A stretch of 40,544 nucleotides of DNA, taken from the NCBI RefSeq assembly GCF_001579175.1, contig NZ_KQ970763.1, positions 1 through 40,544 on the forward strand. Direction: 5' to 3'. The stretch is from Streptococcus oralis (GTDB lineage Bacteria; Bacillota; Bacilli; Lactobacillales; Streptococcaceae). The notes beneath the pieces were generated by a model that saw nothing but the letters and a program-made list of their open reading frames with translations, ran no database searches and was not told the DNA's origin. Shown piece after piece: positions 6,247 to 11,839 of this stretch. The translations under genes were made by a program, and so were the position numbers. Position 1 is the first letter of the stretch. The number at the start of each line of letters is the position of its first letter.

Positions 6247-7548
6247 CTACTCATAGCGTAAGGATTCCACTGGATCCATTTTGCTAATCTTACGTGCTGG
6301 GAAGAAGGCAGAAATATAGCCAAGAAACAAAGCAAAAATGAAGGTCCCTAAAATAGAGAGAAGATTTAATTCAAAAACTTTAGAGATTGATGGATAGAAA
6401 TGGTGAACAATAACATTCGCTAGACTGCCTATCCCTTGAGCAATGATGAAAGCTATAAACAAGGCAATTCCTACAATCCAAAGAGCTTCGTAGATAAAGA
6501 TTCCTTTCACATCTCTATTTTGATAGCCAACAGCCTTCATGACACCGATTTCCTTAGAACGTTGCATAATATTGATATAAATGATGATGCCTATCATAAC
6601 TGCTGCCACCACAATCGCTTGTGAAGAAAGCACAATCAGTAGTCCTTGGATGACACGAATAAAGGTAATCACAATATCAAGAACAGCCTGTTGAGAGAGA
6701 ACTGTATACTTCTTATTTTTCTGCAATTCTTCTGTTACTGTTTTCGTACGAGATGGGTCTTTAAGCTCCAAAATAAAATAGGATACGGCCTTTGTGAATT
6801 CAGCTTCTTTTAAAATCGTTTCCATCTGCTTGGGAGCCATAAAACTATTACTATCTTCTGTATCATCTTCGTCATTGATGACACGCACAATATGAGTCTG
6901 AAAACCTGCCAACTTGCTACCTTCAGCAGCATTTTCTACAATGCTTGCCGAGACTGGTTTGCCAATCACATCACTAGCTGTCAGATTGTTCCCGGTTTGT
7001 TCATTCCAATTTTTGAGCAAACTCATCGGAATCGTCAATCCCTCCTCGTTAACATCCGTATAAAGAGAGCCTGCTAGCACTTTTTCTTTTTCATTGCTAC
7101 TAACAGAAATACTTGTATCTTCATATAAACTCACAACCTGAGCATAAGAAGGCAGGGCTTGGCTAAAATCCACTTCGTGTCCGTCTATGCTGATCTTTGA
7201 CATGGTCATACCAAAAGGACTCTCTAGATATTTAATATTTTCTTTCCCAATCGTATCTGTGATGTAGTTCTTATCATCTTGGTTTAGAAAACCTCTGCCA
7301 GCAACACTGGAATTCAGTGCAATCTGAACTTGGGAAGGAAGCTTGCCACCGTTGGTATTTTCATCAATCATTGAAATCAAGGCATTTCCTAGACCAAAAG
7401 AAATCAACACGCCTACAAAACCAATCGAGGTTGCTACTGCAATCAACAAGTTACGCCACTTTCTTTCTAAAAAGTTACTTAAAGAAAGTTTGAATTTGTT
7501 TTTAAAGGACAATCCTTTATTTTTTGACTTCTTCAACGACTTCACCAT
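6247..7548 (-). CDS. MacB/FtsX-type ABC transporter permease
   Basis: Membrane subunit of a type VII ABC transporter, 433 residues. One N-terminal span (about 36-57, IAVATSIGFVGVLISFGLGNAL) is followed by a large extracytoplasmic MacB-like domain (about 60-290). Three C-terminal spans follow (FIRVIQGLLIVLSSQAIVV, ALWIVGIALFIAFIIAQGIG, LLSILGTFIFALFLGYIS) with the FtsX-type motif KEIGVMKAVGYQNRDV. It overlaps the ATPase gene by 32 bases and ends with ARKISKMDPVESLRYE, a typical end. Such pairs often act in antimicrobial-peptide resistance or lipoprotein/peptide export. Its position at the end of the Trp-rich-peptide operon suggests self-protection, but this is inference. Confidence 0.88.
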   Translation of the reverse strand: MVKSLKKSKNKGLSFKNKFKLSLSNFLERKWRNLLIAVATSIGFVGVLISFGLGNALISMIDENTNGGKLPSQVQIALNSSVAGRGFLNQDDKNYITDTIGKENIKYLESPFGMTMSKISIDGHEVDFSQALPSYAQVVSLYEDTSISVSSNEKEKVLAGSLYTDVNEEGLTIPMSLLKNWNEQTGNNLTASDVIGKPVSASIVENAAEGSKLAGFQTHIVRVINDEDDTEDSNSFMAPKQMETILKEAEFTKAVSYFILELKDPSRTKTVTEELQKNKKYTVLSQQAVLDIVITFIRVIQGLLIVLSSQAIVVAAVMIGIIIYINIMQRSKEIGVMKAVGYQNRDVKGIFIYEALWIVGIALFIAFIIAQGIGSLANVIVHHFYPSISKVFELNLLSILGTFIFALFLGYISAFFPARKISKMDPVESLRYE

Positions 7549-8200
7549 CCTTCATTTTGATAATCACATCTGCGTATTCAGTAACCTCTGGGTTATGAGT
7601 AACAATCAGTACTGTTTTCCCAGCTTGGGCCAAACTTTTGAACACTTCCAAAACCATCTCCTGAGATTGAGAATCGAGTGATCCAGTCGGCTCATCAGCT
7701 ACAATCATATCTGGTTGGTTTACCAGAGCACGTGCAATGGCTACACGTTGCTTTTGCCCACCAGAAAGCTGTTTTACATTCTTAGCCATAAAAGGCTCCA
7801 TCCCTAGACTATGAAGTTGCTCCTGAGCGATCCTTGTCATTTCTTTATCCGATAAATCTTTGACATAGAGAGGCAACTTGACATTATCCAGAACCGATTG
7901 ATGGGGGATGAGATTGAAGTTTTGAAAGACAAACCCAATGTTGTCTTTGCGAAATTGAGTCAATTCAATCTCCGATAGTTCTCTGAGAGACTCCCCTTTA
8001 AAATCTAAAACTCCCTCGTACTCCCTATCAAGACCACTGATGATATTCAGTAGACTGGTTTTGCCACAGCCTGACGGACCATAAATCGCTGTAATTTTTC
8101 CTTCAGAAATCTGCAGGTTAATATTTCTTAGAGCCTGTTCTTTATGTTTGCCGTCCAAAGCGTAAAATTTTGAAATATTTTTCATGGATAAAATGGACAT
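7517..8200 (-). CDS. MacB-type ABC transporter ATP-binding protein
   Basis: ATPase partner of the permease at 6247-7548, 227 residues. Walker A is GPSGCGKTS (about 40-48), Q-loop [14 protein letters not shown], signature [15 protein letters not shown], Walker [14 protein letters not shown]-loop VTHNPE. This is the LolD/MacB subgroup. Start ATG 8200 has AAAGGAG upstream; an alternative Met lies five codons in. The gene begins 59 bases inside the 3' end of the frame-shifted permease fragment. It appears co-transcribed with the accessory block upstream. Confidence 0.9.
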
Positions 8201-8600
8201 TATAATCTCCTTTAATCACTTGTGTTATCGTGTACCGATACAAACTAAAATAAACAATACCAATATAAATTATATTTAAGAAAATCTGAGTCAAAAAACC
8301 GAATATTCTTATTTGGTTAACCAAAAGACAGACTAGGATTGGTAGAAAACGAATAATATACATTGTCACCCTCATCTTTAAAGGGAGCGAAAAAGCTTCT
8401 AGCTCTTTCGCATCTCGAAAATGATATTCTCGAAATAGTAATACCTCTATCATTTGTATTCCTTGGCATAAAAAGTATGCTAGAAAGACTCCGAAAAGAA
8501 ATAGGAAAATATCTATAAAACCGTACCCCAGATAATTTAAAAAGAAATATAGTGAGGTCGCAGGAACTAAGATACTAATAACATTTAAAGACCAAATTCT
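8142..8600 (-). pseudogene. frame-shifted C-terminal part of the ABC permease
   Basis: An open frame runs on from the A7 tract (8600-8606) of the preceding permease gene, one frame away, for 152 codons. The last 103 of these (from ATG 8453, with AAGGA upstream) could be translated on their own. The sequence is strongly hydrophobic, with several membrane spans (VISILVPATSLYFFLNYLG, IFLFLFGVFLAYFL, IIRFLPILVCLLVN, IFLNIIYIGIVYFSLY). Joined in frame, permease residues 1-263 plus these 152 give a coherent 415-residue transporter. I therefore read it as the displaced C-terminal half, produced by indel, slippage or programmed -1 frameshifting, and not as a separate gene, but a separate small membrane protein is possible. 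Its end overlaps the next ATPase gene by 59 bases. Confidence 0.7.
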
Positions 8601-9388
8601 TTTTTTATAAATTTATTAAGATTGATTCCCACAGCCTTCAGATAAGGGAAATCCTTATTTAAAGTAAGAAAATAAAAATTTATCCCTTTATTGCTAAAAA
8701 ATACTGTCCCTGAGAATAAAGCTGTATTCAATATCATCACTTTATTCGTGGTATCAATTCCTAAAAAATCTGGTAAAACCAACCACATGAACATAAACAT
8801 AAAAGTTGAAAACACAGGTATAGTAATCGCTTTAAACATTGTCAAGCCATCAACAACAGATAATAAATAGGACATACTGAACGATTTTTTAAATCTTGGT
8901 CTAACATACCTGATTTTCGGTATAAAAAATATATTATTAAGTAAAAAAACAAGTAGGCACGCAAATATTCCTAAAGAAATATTATAGAAAAAAATAATTA
9001 CTAAGATGGGCAAAACTAGAATTAAATTCTTAAAGAATACTATTTTCCAAAATTCTCTCCCTGTTATATTGAAAAATATCCTCATTGTACTTTCTGTTTT
9101 AGTTTTTAAAACATAAATATTTTCATAAAGTATTCCTAATAACAGAATTGCAGGAACCAATATTGTTGCTAATTCAAAGTATGATAAGATTCCCCAAATT
9201 TGATTTTCTTTTAATATATTATAAATTTCTGATTTAGCAATCAAAAAAATAAAAACCAAGGCAATAGAAGATAAAAAATATTTGTAAGTCAATTGAATTA
9301 GCGATAATTCCTTGACATTATTCGAATCGTTCCAGTATCCTTGCCGTGATAGGAACAACAGAGTAATAGAATAATAAAACTTTTCCAT
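8585..9388 (-). CDS. ABC-2-like membrane permease, prematurely ended by a frameshift
   Basis: Hydrophobic protein of 267 residues with about six to seven predicted spans (for example about 35-50, 75-88, 115-147, 183-205). Basic loops such as IRYVRPRFKKSF lie between them. No sequence family is recognised with certainty; the position directly after an ATPase gene marks it as the transport subunit. The ATG at 9388 follows GAGGGAAATT, which overlaps the ATPase stop codon. The reading ends NKFIKKEFGL just after an A AAA AAA G stretch. Shifting -1 there restores another 152 residues of membrane protein. AT-rich, with codon use poorer than the housekeeping genes around it. Likely role: export of, or immunity to, the Trp-rich peptides encoded upstream (inferred). 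Confidence 0.8.
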   Translation of the reverse strand: MEKFYYSITLLFLSRQGYWNDSNNVKELSLIQLTYKYFLSSIALVFIFLIAKSEIYNILKENQIWGILSYFELATILVPAILLLGILYENIYVLKTKTESTMRIFFNITGREFWKIVFFKNLILVLPILVIIFFYNISLGIFACLLVFLLNNIFFIPKIRYVRPRFKKSFSMSYLLSVVDGLTMFKAITIPVFSTFMFMFMWLVLPDFLGIDTTNKVMILNTALFSGTVFFSNKGINFYFLTLNKDFPYLKAVGINLNKFIKKEFGL

Positions 9389-9399
9389 ACAATTTCCCT

Positions 9400-9984
9400 C
9401 TACAAAGAAATAATCTGATCAACTGTCGGTAAAATTTCCTGTCTCTCGTGGCTTACAATAATAAAGTGTTTACCTAGATTTATCTTTTGCTCAATCAAAT
9501 GAATAAGATTTTCAACCGAAATTTGATCTAATCCCGATAAAGGCTCGTCCATAACATACAAATCAGAATCCAATAAAAATGCTGCTATAAGCATTACTTT
9601 TTTCTTTTCTCCTAATGACAATGATTGAATTGTTTGCGTCATCAATTTCTCATTCAAATAAAATTGTTCTCGTAATTCTCTTAACCGTTTTTCAAACAAA
9701 TTTGTTTCAATAAAAAATTGTTTCTGTAAAAATTCGAATAATAAATTAGGAGATAAACCGATGAAATAGTTGTCCGAAGAATCTGGAACATAGCTAACCT
9801 TTTCGTCAGAAATCACTGAGCCAGAATATGGTTGAACAATTCCTAGTAATACTTTTAATAATGTTGACTTCCCCGCACCATTTTTCCCAGTAATCAGTGT
9901 GAGACCTGAATTTGAAGTATCAAAAGAAATATTATCAAAAAGTATACGACTGTTTACCCGATACGAAATGTTTTCTACTTTCAT
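9400..9984 (-). CDS. ABC transporter ATP-binding protein (peptide cluster)
   Basis: Compact ATPase of 194 residues beginning MKVENISYRV. Walker A is GKNGAGKSTLLKVLLG (about 33-48), the signature is LSLGEKKKVML, Walker B DLYVMDEPLSGLD, and the H-loop IIVSHERQEI. An upstream in-frame start would add 25 residues but would run through a long hairpin. The ATG at 9984 has AAAAGGAG at proper distance, so I use it. It partners the permease at 8585-9388. Small two-gene transporters of this kind accompany leaderless and other bacteriocins as exporters or immunity pumps. Here it lies directly downstream of three Trp-rich peptides. The function is inferred from context. Confidence 0.88.
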   Translation of the reverse strand: MKVENISYRVNSRILFDNISFDTSNSGLTLITGKNGAGKSTLLKVLLGIVQPYSGSVISDEKVSYVPDSSDNYFIGLSPNLLFEFLQKQFFIETNLFEKRLRELREQFYLNEKLMTQTIQSLSLGEKKKVMLIAAFLLDSDLYVMDEPLSGLDQISVENLIHLIEQKINLGKHFIIVSHERQEILPTVDQIISL

Positions 9985-10142: not shown

Positions 10143-10235
10143 TTAACTAAACCATTGTTTTACCCAGCCCCAAATTGCTCTTAAAATCCAGTCAATAATA
10201 ATCCATTTAATAATTCTCCATACGAAACGCCACAT
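10143..10235 (-). CDS. Trp-rich cationic peptide C (30 aa), putative leaderless bacteriocin
   Basis: Third of three tandem paralogues. Residues 1-16 read MWRFVWRIIKWIIIDW, then ILRAIWGWVKQWFS. It has seven Trp, three Arg, two Lys and one Asp, so it is cationic overall and strongly amphipathic. It has no signal peptide and no double-glycine leader, and starts with fMet-Trp like aureocin A53/BHT-B-type leaderless bacteriocins. The ATG at 10235 follows GGAGGAATTGTT, the same ribosome-binding site as peptide B, and the stop TAA is followed by a second TAA. It differs most from A and B, in residues 13-21. Function is inferred; it could also be a toxin or a signalling peptide. Confidence 0.8.
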   Translation of the reverse strand: MWRFVWRIIKWIIIDWILRAIWGWVKQWFS

Positions 10236-10246
10236 AACAATTCCTC

Positions 10247-10342
10247 CTATTTACTAAACCACTGTGCAACCCAAGCCCACATAGCTGTCCACATTAAATT
10301 AATTAAAATCCATTTTACAATTTTCCATACCCAACGCCACAT
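10247..10342 (-). CDS. Trp-rich cationic peptide B (31 aa), putative leaderless bacteriocin
   Basis: Middle paralogue: MWRWVWKIVKWILINL for residues 1-16, then MWTAMWAWVAQWFSK. It has eight Trp at 2, 4, 6, 11, 18, 22, 24 and 28, the same positions as in peptide A, and net charge about +4. ATG 10342 follows GGAGGAATTGTT. The gene lies 11 bases after the stop of peptide A and 11 bases before peptide C. Codons are conserved with A over the first 16 residues, indicating recent tandem duplication with selection on Trp positions and charge. Too short for routine gene calling. No transmembrane-plus-leader layout, so secretion would need a dedicated ABC transporter such as the one just downstream. 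Confidence 0.82.
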   Translation of the reverse strand: MWRWVWKIVKWILINLMWTAMWAWVAQWFSK

Positions 10343-10353
10343 AACAATTCCTC

Positions 10354-10449
10354 CTATTTACTAAACCATTGTTTTACCCAGCCCCAGAGAGCTTCCCATA
10401 GTAAATTAATTAAAATCCATCTTACAATTCTCCATACCCAACGCCACAT
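10354..10449 (-). CDS. Trp-rich cationic peptide A (31 aa), putative leaderless bacteriocin
   Basis: First paralogue in transcription order: MWRWVWRIVRWILINL for residues 1-16, then LWEALWGWVKQWFSK. It has eight Trp in 31 residues, five basic residues and one Glu (net about +4). The Trp spacing would place most aromatic side chains on a membrane-facing surface of a helix. ATG 10449 follows AAGGAG at good distance, and the stop is TAG. It begins 25 bases after the stop of the 96-residue protein, so the peptides share a transcript with it. The family of multi-peptide leaderless bacteriocins (such as aureocin A70 or garvicin KS) uses 3-4 tandem peptides of about 30 residues, but those are not Trp-rich; BHT-B and aureocin A53 are Trp-rich but longer. 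Confidence 0.82.
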   Translation of the reverse strand: MWRWVWRIVRWILINLLWEALWGWVKQWFSK

Positions 10450-10474: not shown

Positions 10475-10765
10475 TTATTTTAATCTTCTAAAAAAATTAA
10501 AATTCCTAAATGTCCTGTTATTCTCTAACGTCATATCCAGTCCTACACTTACTTCTTGAACGAGAATAAGTGCATTTTTTTTAATGCCTACTAAAGGATA
10601 AATTTTTAACTTTTGGGGTTTTATTGTAATCAGATCCATTAAATAGCCATTAACTCTTATTTCTACTTGAATAAGATTTGATAATGTTTGTCGAATGAGC
10701 AGTACATCTCCTACTTCTGACATGCCAGTCAATAAAACATTGTTTATTCTTTCAAATTCTAGCAT
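10475..10765 (-). CDS. unknown 96-residue protein between pheromone and Trp-rich peptides
   Basis: I do not recognise this protein. It starts MLEFERINNVLLTGMSEVGD and ends NRTFRNFNFFRRLK, with alternating hydrophobic stretches (VLLIRQTLSNLIQVEIRV, LKIYPLVGIKKNALILVQEV) that suggest beta strands and not membrane helices; no signal peptide. The basic C-terminal tail is notable. ATG 10765 follows AGAGGAATGAT and lies 15 bases after the stop of the 16-residue peptide, so the two are probably translationally close. Position before the bacteriocin-like peptides makes it a candidate immunity, chaperone or regulatory protein. No function is claimed. Confidence 0.75.
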   Translation of the reverse strand: MLEFERINNVLLTGMSEVGDVLLIRQTLSNLIQVEIRVNGYLMDLITIKPQKLKIYPLVGIKKNALILVQEVSVGLDMTLENNRTFRNFNFFRRLK

Positions 10766-10780
10766 ATCATTCCTCTAAAC

Positions 10781-10831
10781 TCAAGTCCACCACCCACCCG
10801 TGATAAATAGAAAAATCAGTATTTTAATCAT
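10781..10831 (-). CDS. 16-residue hydrophobic peptide ending GGWWT, putative WW-type pheromone precursor
   Basis: The minus strand encodes MIKILIFLFITGGWWT followed by TGA. ATG 10831 has AAAGGA seven bases upstream. A Lys near the N-terminus, a hydrophobic core and a C-terminal segment with a Trp-Trp pair resemble the ComS/SHP class of short pheromone precursors, in which the mature signal is the last 7-8 residues and WW is typical of several streptococcal XIP pheromones. It sits 87 bases from a divergently positioned role partner in function but on the same strand as the ComR-like regulator gene, directly downstream of a GACA-N4-TGTC dyad promoter. It is shorter than most ComS peptides. Export, processing and re-import through Ami/Opp would be expected but are not shown. 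Confidence 0.72.
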   Translation of the reverse strand: MIKILIFLFITGGWWT

Positions 10832-10861
10832 AGTAAATTCCTTTCTCTTTATTATGAATCC

Positions 10862-10905
10862 ATTTTAACAAAAAAGCGACATTCCTCCAATGACAGAAAT
10901 GTCAC
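10862..10905 (-). promoter_or_regulatory. promoter with ComR-box-like dyad for the peptide operon
   Basis: A perfect inverted repeat TGACA-GAAA-TGTCA (10891-10904) abuts a weak -35 (TTGGAG on the minus strand, 10885-10890), followed 17 bases later by TAAAAT (10862-10867) with TGT before it. A T-rich tract TTTTTT lies in the spacer. A wider repeat GTGACATT ... AATGTCGC spans 10876-10905. GACA-N4-TGTC is, from memory, the core of streptococcal ComR boxes, and placement just upstream of the -35 fits an activator. Confidence 0.65.
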
Positions 10906-10918
10906 TCCTATAAAGCAT

Positions 10919-11839
10919 TTAAAGATATCTTTCTAGGTCCTCAGCCCATTCATTGTCTAAACTAATGAGTAACTGCTCATTGCCAAACATTCTCGCCATC
11001 ATTTTTGCTTCTTCATACTTTTGTTTGGCTGTTTCATAATCCATCTGAATATAATATTTCCACTCAAGCATCAAGACAATTGGTTGTTTTTGAAAATCTC
11101 GTGTTTTCTGTCCTATTTTATTTAAGGTCTCAACTGCTCTCTTAAAATAATGAAACAGCCCCATAATTTCTATACAAGCTAAAGAAGCTAACAAGGAATC
11201 TCTAAGCAAGTCCAAACAATCGAACTCTATCTTATCAACCTGAGAAATTAGTTTGTCATGAAAACAAAGAATGGTTTCATGCTCAGATTCTTTTATCTCG
11301 CCCACATTTAAACCATCCATTAACTGACAGTTGAAATACAGTCTCAATTTCAAAAAGTCCTCGGCTTTATATACATCTCTGGACAGTAAGTCTTGAAGAC
11401 CGCCCTCAATCACACTACTTCCGTATAAGGAATTACTAGTCGCCCTCACCTCATCTATAGCTTGAAGACAATCCACTATCACTTTCTCATCACGTGGCAA
11501 ATCATCATAAAAACATTCAAAAATCTCATCAAAATATTCTTCCTTTCGTTCCTGCAACTCTTTGTCTCCATAGTCAGGATGATGAAGAAGAAAGTATTTT
11601 AATTCTTGGTAACGCTTGGGTAATTCCTTATAGTCTGGCATCAAGACATAGGATGGAATGCCTAGCCTATCTGCAATGTATTCTAGTGTTTTTATCGTAG
11701 GACGAAATTCTCCTTTCTCGATGCGGACCAACTGACGAACGGACAACTCTGACTCATCCCCACAAAAAACTGGACGACTAAGACCTTTCTCCTCTCTAAG
11801 GATTCGTACCTTCTCTCCTAATTCATTCACTTGTCCCAT
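10919..11839 (-). CDS. ComR-like (RRNPP/Rgg-related) peptide-responsive regulator
   Basis: Transcriptional regulator of 306 residues. The XRE helix-turn-helix (about 6-63) includes LGEKVRILREEKGLSR and ELSVRQLVRIEKGE. This aligns with the DNA-binding domain of ComR as I remember it (GAELTVRQLIRIEKGES), the activator that binds WW-containing XIP in salivarius, mutans and pyogenic streptococci. The rest (about 70-306) is helical, TPR-like and acidic, ending with EEAKMMARMFGNEQLL-type repeats. The length matches ComR (about 300). ATG 11839 follows GAGGAAGAC. Own promoter 11894-11922. Because comX here sits far away and mitis-group competence uses ComCDE, this paralogue more likely controls the adjacent peptide cluster, as ScuR/SarF do for bacteriocins in salivarius streptococci. 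Confidence 0.85.
   Translation of the reverse strand: MGQVNELGEKVRILREEKGLSRPVFCGDESELSVRQLVRIEKGEFRPTIKTLEYIADRLGIPSYVLMPDYKELPKRYQELKYFLLHHPDYGDKELQERKEEYFDEIFECFYDDLPRDEKVIVDCLQAIDEVRATSNSLYGSSVIEGGLQDLLSRDVYKAEDFLKLRLYFNCQLMDGLNVGEIKESEHETILCFHDKLISQVDKIEFDCLDLLRDSLLASLACIEIMGLFHYFKRAVETLNKIGQKTRDFQKQPIVLMLEWKYYIQMDYETAKQKYEEAKMMARMFGNEQLLISLDNEWAEDLERYL

What the first reader, a model, noticed from the sequence alone, without database searches (positions are those of the whole stretch)
10781..11839. ComR-like regulator paired with a 16-residue GGWWT peptide in a mitis-group genome
The regulator has a ComR-type helix-turn-helix and length. Immediately downstream lies a tiny gene for MIKILIFLFITGGWWT with a good ribosome-binding site. 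WW-containing C-termini are the hallmark of several ComS/XIP pheromones. Mitis-group competence uses ComCDE, so an orphan ComR/ComS-like pair here is most likely a separate quorum circuit, as ScuR/SarF are for bacteriocins in salivarius streptococci. The peptide is too short for standard gene callers.
Basis: partly seen in the sequence, partly recalled or inferred. Interest (0 to 1): 0.93.

Follow-up and report, generated by a model that had tools for sequence, protein, structure and literature searches.

The report
Swappable pheromone-receptor pair in mitis streptococci
In a mitis-group Streptococcus, a ComR-type regulator gene lies next to a gene for a 16-residue peptide predicted to be the signal that switches on a set of likely bacteriocin genes beside it, and a close relative differs strongly in only two blocks of this locus, the regulator's predicted peptide-binding stretch and the peptide's own stretch, as would be expected of matched partners.

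Summary
A 306-aa ComR-type regulator (10919-11839, minus strand) is followed by a ComR-box promoter and a 16-codon gene for MIKILIFLFITGGWWT (10781-10831). It is most likely a ComRS-type pheromone circuit separate from competence. Strongest evidence: against relative L067 most 60-base bins of the locus are 0.90-1.00 identical, but two blocks fall to 0.32-0.60: the regulator's codons ~134-247 (32% protein identity) and the promoter spacer plus peptide (LLWWK instead of GGWWT). The exact box occurs once each in 30 of 284 Streptococcus genomes, always within 250 bases 3' of this regulator. Of 43 distinct regulator genes, 11 have a WW peptide; 24 instead have an ABC ATPase gene within 500 bases, as expected of receiver-only strains; three loci carry both receptor types in tandem. 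Downstream lie a 96-aa protein, three tryptophan-rich 30-31-aa peptides (likely leaderless bacteriocins) and transporters; one permease is split by a frameshift here. The kind is known: ScbR/ScbS controls streptococcin B in S. pneumoniae/pseudopneumoniae. This is a different locus (38% identity), not found in our literature searches. Against: near-identical receptors pair with different peptide ends in one group; no activity has been tested.

The parts
10919..11839 (-). ComR-type regulator, 306 aa (XRE helix-turn-helix plus ComR TPR domain)
   Evidence: Pfam ComR_TPR 200.5 bits; best PDB sequence match S. suis ComR 5fd4, E 2.5e-54; predicted fold best matches ComR structures
11099..11440 (-). 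Codons 134-247 of the regulator: the block that changes with the peptide (predicted pheromone-binding TPR region)
   Evidence: 32% protein identity to L067 against 98% before and 90% after it; nucleotide profile; helices between 138 and 246 in the model
10887..10905 (-). ComR-box-like inverted repeat GTGACATTTCTGTCATTGG
   Evidence: Exact match once each in 30 of 284 genomes, all 3' of this regulator; core present at 43 of 43 regulator genes
10862..10867 (-). -10 element TAAAAT, 24 bases after the TGTC half-site
   Evidence: Same offset at 39 of 43 regulator genes
10781..10831 (-). Predicted pheromone precursor gene, MIKILIFLFITGGWWT
   Evidence: allelic forms in relatives
10475..10765 (-). 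96-aa protein of unknown function, mostly beta in the model; its family is linked to ComR-like loci
   Evidence: no Pfam match
10354..10449 (-). Tryptophan-rich 31-aa peptide, likely leaderless bacteriocin
   Evidence: 8 W of 31, +4, pI 11.7; orthologues
10247..10342 (-). Tryptophan-rich 31-aa peptide, likely leaderless bacteriocin
   Evidence: 8 W of 31, +4, pI 11.3
10143..10235 (-). Tryptophan-rich 30-aa peptide, likely leaderless bacteriocin
   Evidence: 7 W of 30, +4, pI 11.7
9400..9984 (-). ABC transporter ATPase, likely bacteriocin export or immunity
   Evidence: ABC_tran 77.2 bits
8142..9388 (-). Permease gene, split over two frames in this window (8585-9388 and 8142-8453); 415 aa in the two relatives compared
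7517..8200 (-). ABC ATPase of a MacB-like pair (best NCBIfam match the putative bacteriocin-export subfamily TIGR03608, 221 bits, below its cut-off of 254.85); in 24 peptide-less loci its relative starts within 500 bases of the regulator
6247..7548 (-). FtsX-type permease of the same pair, likely immunity or defence
   Evidence: FtsX 69.3 bits; follows the ATPase in 23 of the 24 peptide-less loci by its start motif

Best explanation
This is likely a ComRS-type peptide-pheromone circuit: the 16-residue peptide encoded at 10781-10831 is predicted to be exported and trimmed to its WW-bearing C-terminus (about TGGWWT), re-imported, and bound by the ComR-type regulator (10919-11839), which would then activate the one box-bearing promoter in front of the peptide gene and a likely leaderless-bacteriocin operon. 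Shown by sequence: the regulator family, the box and its spacing, the peptide gene and its allelic forms, the gene order, the coupled change of receptor block and peptide between the window and L067, and the peptide-less loci. Inferred: export and processing, uptake by the Ami/Opp permease, binding, activation, one transcript for the operon, killing activity, and that receiver-only strains switch on ABC/FtsX defence when producers signal. It appears not to control competence in this strain.
For: ComR_TPR; ComR structures are the 5 of 5 sequence matches in the PDB at E 0.001 and ranks 1-10 by fold. R35 and R39, which contact the GACA half-site in S. thermophilus ComR, and K100, which binds the peptide's C-terminal carboxylate there (PMC5131891, passages), align with R35, R39 and K99. 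The box has GACA-N4-TGTC with -10 at offset 24, the spacing of the published scb motif (PMC11796350). One exact box per genome in 30 of 284 genomes, 30 of 30 beside the regulator, reversed control 0. Window against L067: regulator blocks 98%, 32%, 90% identical; nucleotide bins 0.97-1.00 from 10760 to 8721 but 0.42-0.60 over the promoter spacer and peptide. Window against L063, with the same peptide: blocks 92%, 100%, 95%. Peptide difference correlates with the middle block (r 0.66) more than with the N-terminal (0.21) or C-terminal (0.35) block over 11 loci. ComC beside a GHKL histidine kinase and 6 peptide-binding SBP_bac_5 proteins, a common family, in the own genome.
Against: L071 (SISWWK) and L072/L069 (IGGWWG) have middle blocks 94-96% identical but different peptide ends, so pairing is not strict everywhere. 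Only 11 of 43 regulator genes have a peptide gene. E117 of the S. thermophilus lock aligns with R116 and R51 with T51, so the autoinhibited state may differ. The permease in this window is split by a frameshift, so this strain may not export or resist the product, unless it is an assembly error. I found no expression, binding or killing data for this locus. The correlation rests on 55 non-independent pairs and was not tested by permutation.
Confidence: 0.85

Rival explanations
1. The regulator is a ComR-type activator but its inducer comes mainly from other strains; the local peptide gene is a decaying remnant and the locus mostly serves to sense others and switch on the ABC/FtsX pair.
For: 24 of 43 regulator genes have no peptide and an ABC ATPase gene within 500 bases; in relative L066 the first W codon of the peptide gene is TGA; the window's own permease is frameshifted; the pneumococcal scb locus responds to a peptide it does not encode (PMC11796350).
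Against: In the window the peptide ORF, start and ribosome site are intact, and the peptide is identical in L063 and differs by one residue in L064.
Confidence: 0.2
2. The 16-residue ORF is not a signal but a small hydrophobic effector, such as a membrane peptide or one more bacteriocin of the operon.
For: It is hydrophobic (mean Kyte-Doolittle 1.57) and lies first in a likely bacteriocin operon.
Against: Between the window and L067 its sequence changes together with the receptor's TPR block while the downstream tryptophan-rich peptides are identical; it has the position and WW end of ComS and ScbS.
Confidence: 0.06
3. A competence ComRS system: the regulator activates comX in this strain.
For: Regulator family, WW peptide and box are those of competence ComRS.
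Against: No other site within 2 mismatches of the box in the genome held, and the six 3-mismatch sites lack the promoter layout; ComC and a kinase beside it are present. The comX promoter itself was not inspected.
Confidence: 0.03
4. The tryptophan-rich peptides are not bacteriocins but signalling or membrane-stress peptides; the circuit controls something else.
For: No Pfam or NCBIfam match; no activity data; none seen in the 5 type C loci.
Against: Size, charge and hydropathy lie in or near the range tabulated for multi-peptide leaderless bacteriocins (PMC6131525, passages), and ABC transporter genes follow.
Confidence: 0.2

Closest known systems
ScbR/ScbS (SIP) of S. pneumoniae and S. pseudopneumoniae, streptococcin B locus (PMC11796350; passages and Discussion read)
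   Same: ComR-type regulator, downstream box-n20-TATAAT promoter, short WW peptide, bacteriocin target, strains that keep regulator and box but lack the peptide gene, not required for competence
   Different: Other site (between the genes read here as adhE and gap) and 38% identity to the ScbR-type protein of L080; target is tryptophan-rich peptides with ABC transporters, not a lactococcin-972-like protein; several pherotypes and tandem double receptors here; a ComE site was not sought here
ScuR/SarF of S. salivarius (PMC6703854; passages)
   Same: ComR paralogues that control bacteriocins apart from competence; receptor differences concentrated in a few stretches
   Different: No short coding sequence was found beside scuR or sarF; here the peptide gene is adjacent
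Type II/III competence ComRS, including the S. suis pherotypes (PMC5131902, PMC4072589; passages)
   Same: Same protein family, WW end, box; in S. suis pherotypes the DNA-binding half is identical and the C-terminal half varies with ComS
   Different: No competence target found; here the variable block is internal, with a conserved C-terminal end after it
Multi-peptide leaderless bacteriocins such as aureocin A70 and garvicin KS (PMC6131525; passages)
   Same: Several cationic hydrophobic peptides of about 30 aa without leader, with transporter genes
   Different: 7-8 tryptophans per peptide; no family match; regulated by a predicted pheromone circuit

Membership tests
ComR-type pheromone receptor (RRNPP superfamily) | XRE helix-turn-helix plus ComR TPR domain over the whole length | tested here: met
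   ComR_TPR residues 74-298, 200.5 bits; HTH_3 is 0.2 bit below its cut-off; 5 of 5 PDB sequence matches and fold ranks 1-10 are ComR
ComR-type pheromone receptor (RRNPP superfamily) | Conserved DNA-contact arginines R35 and R39 | tested here: met
   Aligned R35 and R39; invariant in 16 of 16 aligned proteins
ComR-type pheromone receptor (RRNPP superfamily) | Small ORF downstream with tryptophan-bearing C-terminus | tested here: met
   Window and 10 further regulator genes of 43
ComR-type pheromone receptor (RRNPP superfamily) | GACA-N4-TGTC box and -10 at fixed spacing | tested here: met
   43 of 43 with GACA-N4-TGT[C/T] box, 39 of 43 with offset 24
ComR-type pheromone receptor (RRNPP superfamily) | Direct activation by the processed peptide, imported by Ami/Opp | not testable with these tools
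   Only presence of 6 SBP_bac_5 proteins shown
S. thermophilus-type autoinhibitory lock (mechanistic detail, not used to define the family) | E117 and E118 paired with R39 and R51 | tested here: not met
   E117 aligns with R116, E118 with D117, R51 with T51
Competence ComRS | Second ComR box at comX/sigX and control of competence | tested here: not met
   No second site within 2 mismatches; six 3-mismatch sites without promoter layout. comX promoter not inspected directly
ScbR/ScbS | Orthologous regulator before a lactococcin-972-like operon | tested here: not met
   38% identity to the regulator of L080, whose peptide differs by one residue from published ScbS; the window operon has tryptophan-rich peptides
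SHP/Rgg | Rgg-type C-terminal domain and SHP peptide | tested here: not met
   Pfam gives ComR_TPR and helix-turn-helix families only; the Rgg2 chains listed rank below the ten ComR chains
Leaderless bacteriocin | Small cationic hydrophobic peptide without leader, with transporter | tested here: met
   pI 11.3-11.7, +4, GRAVY 0.25-0.57; transporter genes
Leaderless bacteriocin | Antimicrobial activity | not testable with these tools
   None

The most novel reading that the evidence does not exclude
Mitis-group streptococci run a modular pherotype market at one chromosomal site: the receptor's pheromone-binding block and the pheromone are exchanged together inside otherwise similar loci, most strains are receivers that lost pheromone and bacteriocins but keep an inducible ABC/FtsX defence, and some carry two receptor types in tandem so as to hear two pherotypes.
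Probability: 0.5. Interest if true: 0.78.

Novelty: new variant of a known kind. Interest (0 to 1): 0.64.

Why it matters
Mitis-group streptococci are common in the human mouth and throat and share that niche with the pneumococcus. A second ComRS-type circuit in this group, with a natural receptor/pheromone swap in very similar surroundings, gives matched natural experiments for how ComR-type receptors choose peptides, and the peptide-less and double-receptor loci make bacterial eavesdropping directly testable. The tryptophan-rich peptides are candidate antimicrobials that would stay silent in the laboratory without the peptide.

Full report
WHAT IS THERE. On the minus strand of the window, 11839 down to 10919 encodes a 306-aa regulator; 87 bases after its stop codon begins a 16-codon gene, MIKILIFLFITGGWWT (10831-10781), with an AGAAAGGA ribosome-site-like motif. 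The regulator matches Pfam ComR_TPR with 200.5 bits, its best solved relative by sequence is ComR of S. suis, and its predicted structure (mean pLDDT 88.1) is closest to ComR chains. Between them lie GTGACATTTCTGTCATTGG (10887-10905) and TAAAAT (10862-10867). The host is a mitis-group Streptococcus: among the named loci at hand its 2664-base adhE-like gene is closest to ones labelled S. pseudopneumoniae (96.8%), S. mitis (96.1%) and Streptococcus sp. M334 (95.8%); the species is not settled. The names adhE and gap for the flanking genes are recalled; gap has a Pfam match.

IS IT CHANCE. In the window one of 32 ATG-started ORFs of 12-20 aa with a ribosome-site-like motif ends in WW plus 0-2 residues, and it is this one. 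In 19 related loci 12 of 153 do (11 distinct ORFs), each behind a ComR-like gene and box. The exact 19-base box occurs in 30 of 284 Streptococcus genomes, once in each, and by coordinates all 30 lie within 250 bases 3' of this regulator; the reversed pattern gave 0. In the own genome 6 further sites differ by 3 mismatches from an 18-base box, against 2 for the reversed control.

RELATIVES. I compared 43 distinct regulator genes from the loci then at hand (identity at least 55% over at least 280 aa; shorter pieces were dropped before counting, and a split copy in genome G139 was never fetched). All 43 have the box core; the -10 lies at offset 24 in 39, and the four others are in tandem-receptor loci. 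By residues 134-247 they fall into type A (26, like the window), B (11, like L067), C (5) and D (1). WW peptides follow 4 of A (GGWWT three times, GGWWG once), 2 of B (LLWWK), 2 of C (SISWWK, GGWWG) and D (FSWWW); 2 further C loci have IGGWWG at a second box about 2 kb on. That makes 11 of 43. One A locus (L066) has TGA at the first W codon and another cassette. One B locus is masked by N there. Two A loci stop at contig ends. Three A genes are the upstream copy of a tandem A-B pair. One C locus has no peptide. In 24 (16 A, 8 B) the ABC ATPase gene that in producers lies at the end of the operon starts 153-351 bases after the regulator, and in 23 of these the start motif of the FtsX permease follows; in one of the 24 a 37-aa ORF lies between. 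Two of the peptide-less loci printed (L033, L043) still show an AGAAAGGAATT stretch like that before the peptide gene, which suggests loss rather than absence from the start; this is inference.

THE SWAP. Against L067 the window is 0.97-1.00 identical in every 60-base bin from 10760 to 8721 and 0.82-1.00 over the rest of the regulator, but drops to 0.32-0.57 between 11420 and 11121 and to 0.42-0.60 between 10880 and 10761. In protein terms the three blocks of the regulator (1-133, 134-247, 248-306) are 98%, 32% and 90% identical. L063, with the same peptide as the window, has 92%, 100% and 95%. So in these pairs the receptor block goes with the peptide, not with the rest of the protein. Over the 11 peptide-bearing loci peptide difference correlates with block 134-247 (r 0.66) more than with the N-terminal (0.21) or C-terminal block (0.35) (55 non-independent pairs, no permutation). 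The exception is told plainly: L071 (SISWWK) and L072/L069 (IGGWWG) have middle blocks 94-96% identical.

THE OPERON. After the peptide come a 96-aa protein, three peptides of 30-31 aa with 7-8 tryptophans each, an ABC ATPase, a permease, and an ABC ATPase/FtsX pair; that they form one transcript is inferred. Charge +4, pI 11.3-11.7 and GRAVY 0.25-0.57 of the small peptides fall in or near the range tabulated for leaderless bacteriocins (PMC6131525, passages). In this window the permease is split into two frames relative to 415-aa relatives. The 96-aa family has matches in 45 of 284 genomes. Comparing coordinates by hand, 13 of 13 copies at orthologous loci and 38 of 41 other copies lie within about 6 kb 3' of a ComR-like gene on the same strand; for the remaining 3 no such gene was's list, which was cut, so they are untested.

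NOT COMPETENCE. The own genome has ComC beside a 445-aa protein with a GHKL histidine-kinase domain, one ComR_TPR gene, and no second box within 2 mismatches; the six 3-mismatch sites lack the promoter layout. The comX promoter was not inspected itself.

MECHANISM. By analogy with ComRS (PMC5131891, passages; PMC6703854, passages) and ScbRS (PMC11796350, passages and Discussion), the peptide would be exported, trimmed, taken up by Ami/Opp, and bind the regulator's TPR domain, freeing its DNA-binding domain for the box. R35, R39 and K100 of S. thermophilus ComR are conserved here (as R35, R39, K99), but E117 and R51 of its autoinhibited state are not (R116, T51), so the resting state may differ. 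In receiver-only strains the same promoter would raise ABC/FtsX genes when neighbours signal. All these steps are inferred.

KNOWN OR NEW. ScbRS showed in 2024 that the mitis group has a ComRS-type bacteriocin circuit and that strains without the peptide gene can respond to a neighbour's peptide; its authors suggested that this may protect them. The window's circuit is another one: other site, 38% identity to the ScbR-type protein, another kind of target, several pherotypes, double receptors. Ten literature searches listed no paper that I recognised as describing it. I rate it a new variant of a known kind.

Noticed in passing
window 8142-9388, minus strand: The permease gene of the likely bacteriocin operon is split over two frames near 8600-8654 relative to 415-aa relatives; frameshift or assembly error not decided.
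   Followed up: partly
window 10475-10765 and L103, L107, L108, L118: A 96-aa, mostly beta protein family without Pfam match travels with ComR-like loci of different targets.
   Followed up: partly
L079 (G104:C1:587000-596000): Another ComR-like gene (41% to the window's regulator) followed by a box-like site and a 13-aa ORF, MLVLVVAIFWIYK, without a WW pair, before an ABC transporter-like ORF.
   Followed up: no
L078 (G262:C13:19000-29500): Two tandem ComR-like genes, a box-like site, MFGYFKILDISGWWIKRG, and the start of a protein resembling the one after the scbS-like ORF in L080.
   Followed up: no
L066 (G116:C1:908000-918700): First W codon of the peptide gene is TGA and the downstream cassette is a different one, though the 96-aa gene is kept.
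   Followed up: no
L014/L082, L041, L046/L022: Type A and type B regulators in tandem, box after each copy, no peptide gene found.
   Followed up: partly
L081 (G256:C1:69500-79500): Four ComR genes in tandem before one ComS-like ORF ending in GGNWGTWVEE, a S. suis-type arrangement (the species label comes from the peptide, not from a record).
   Followed up: no
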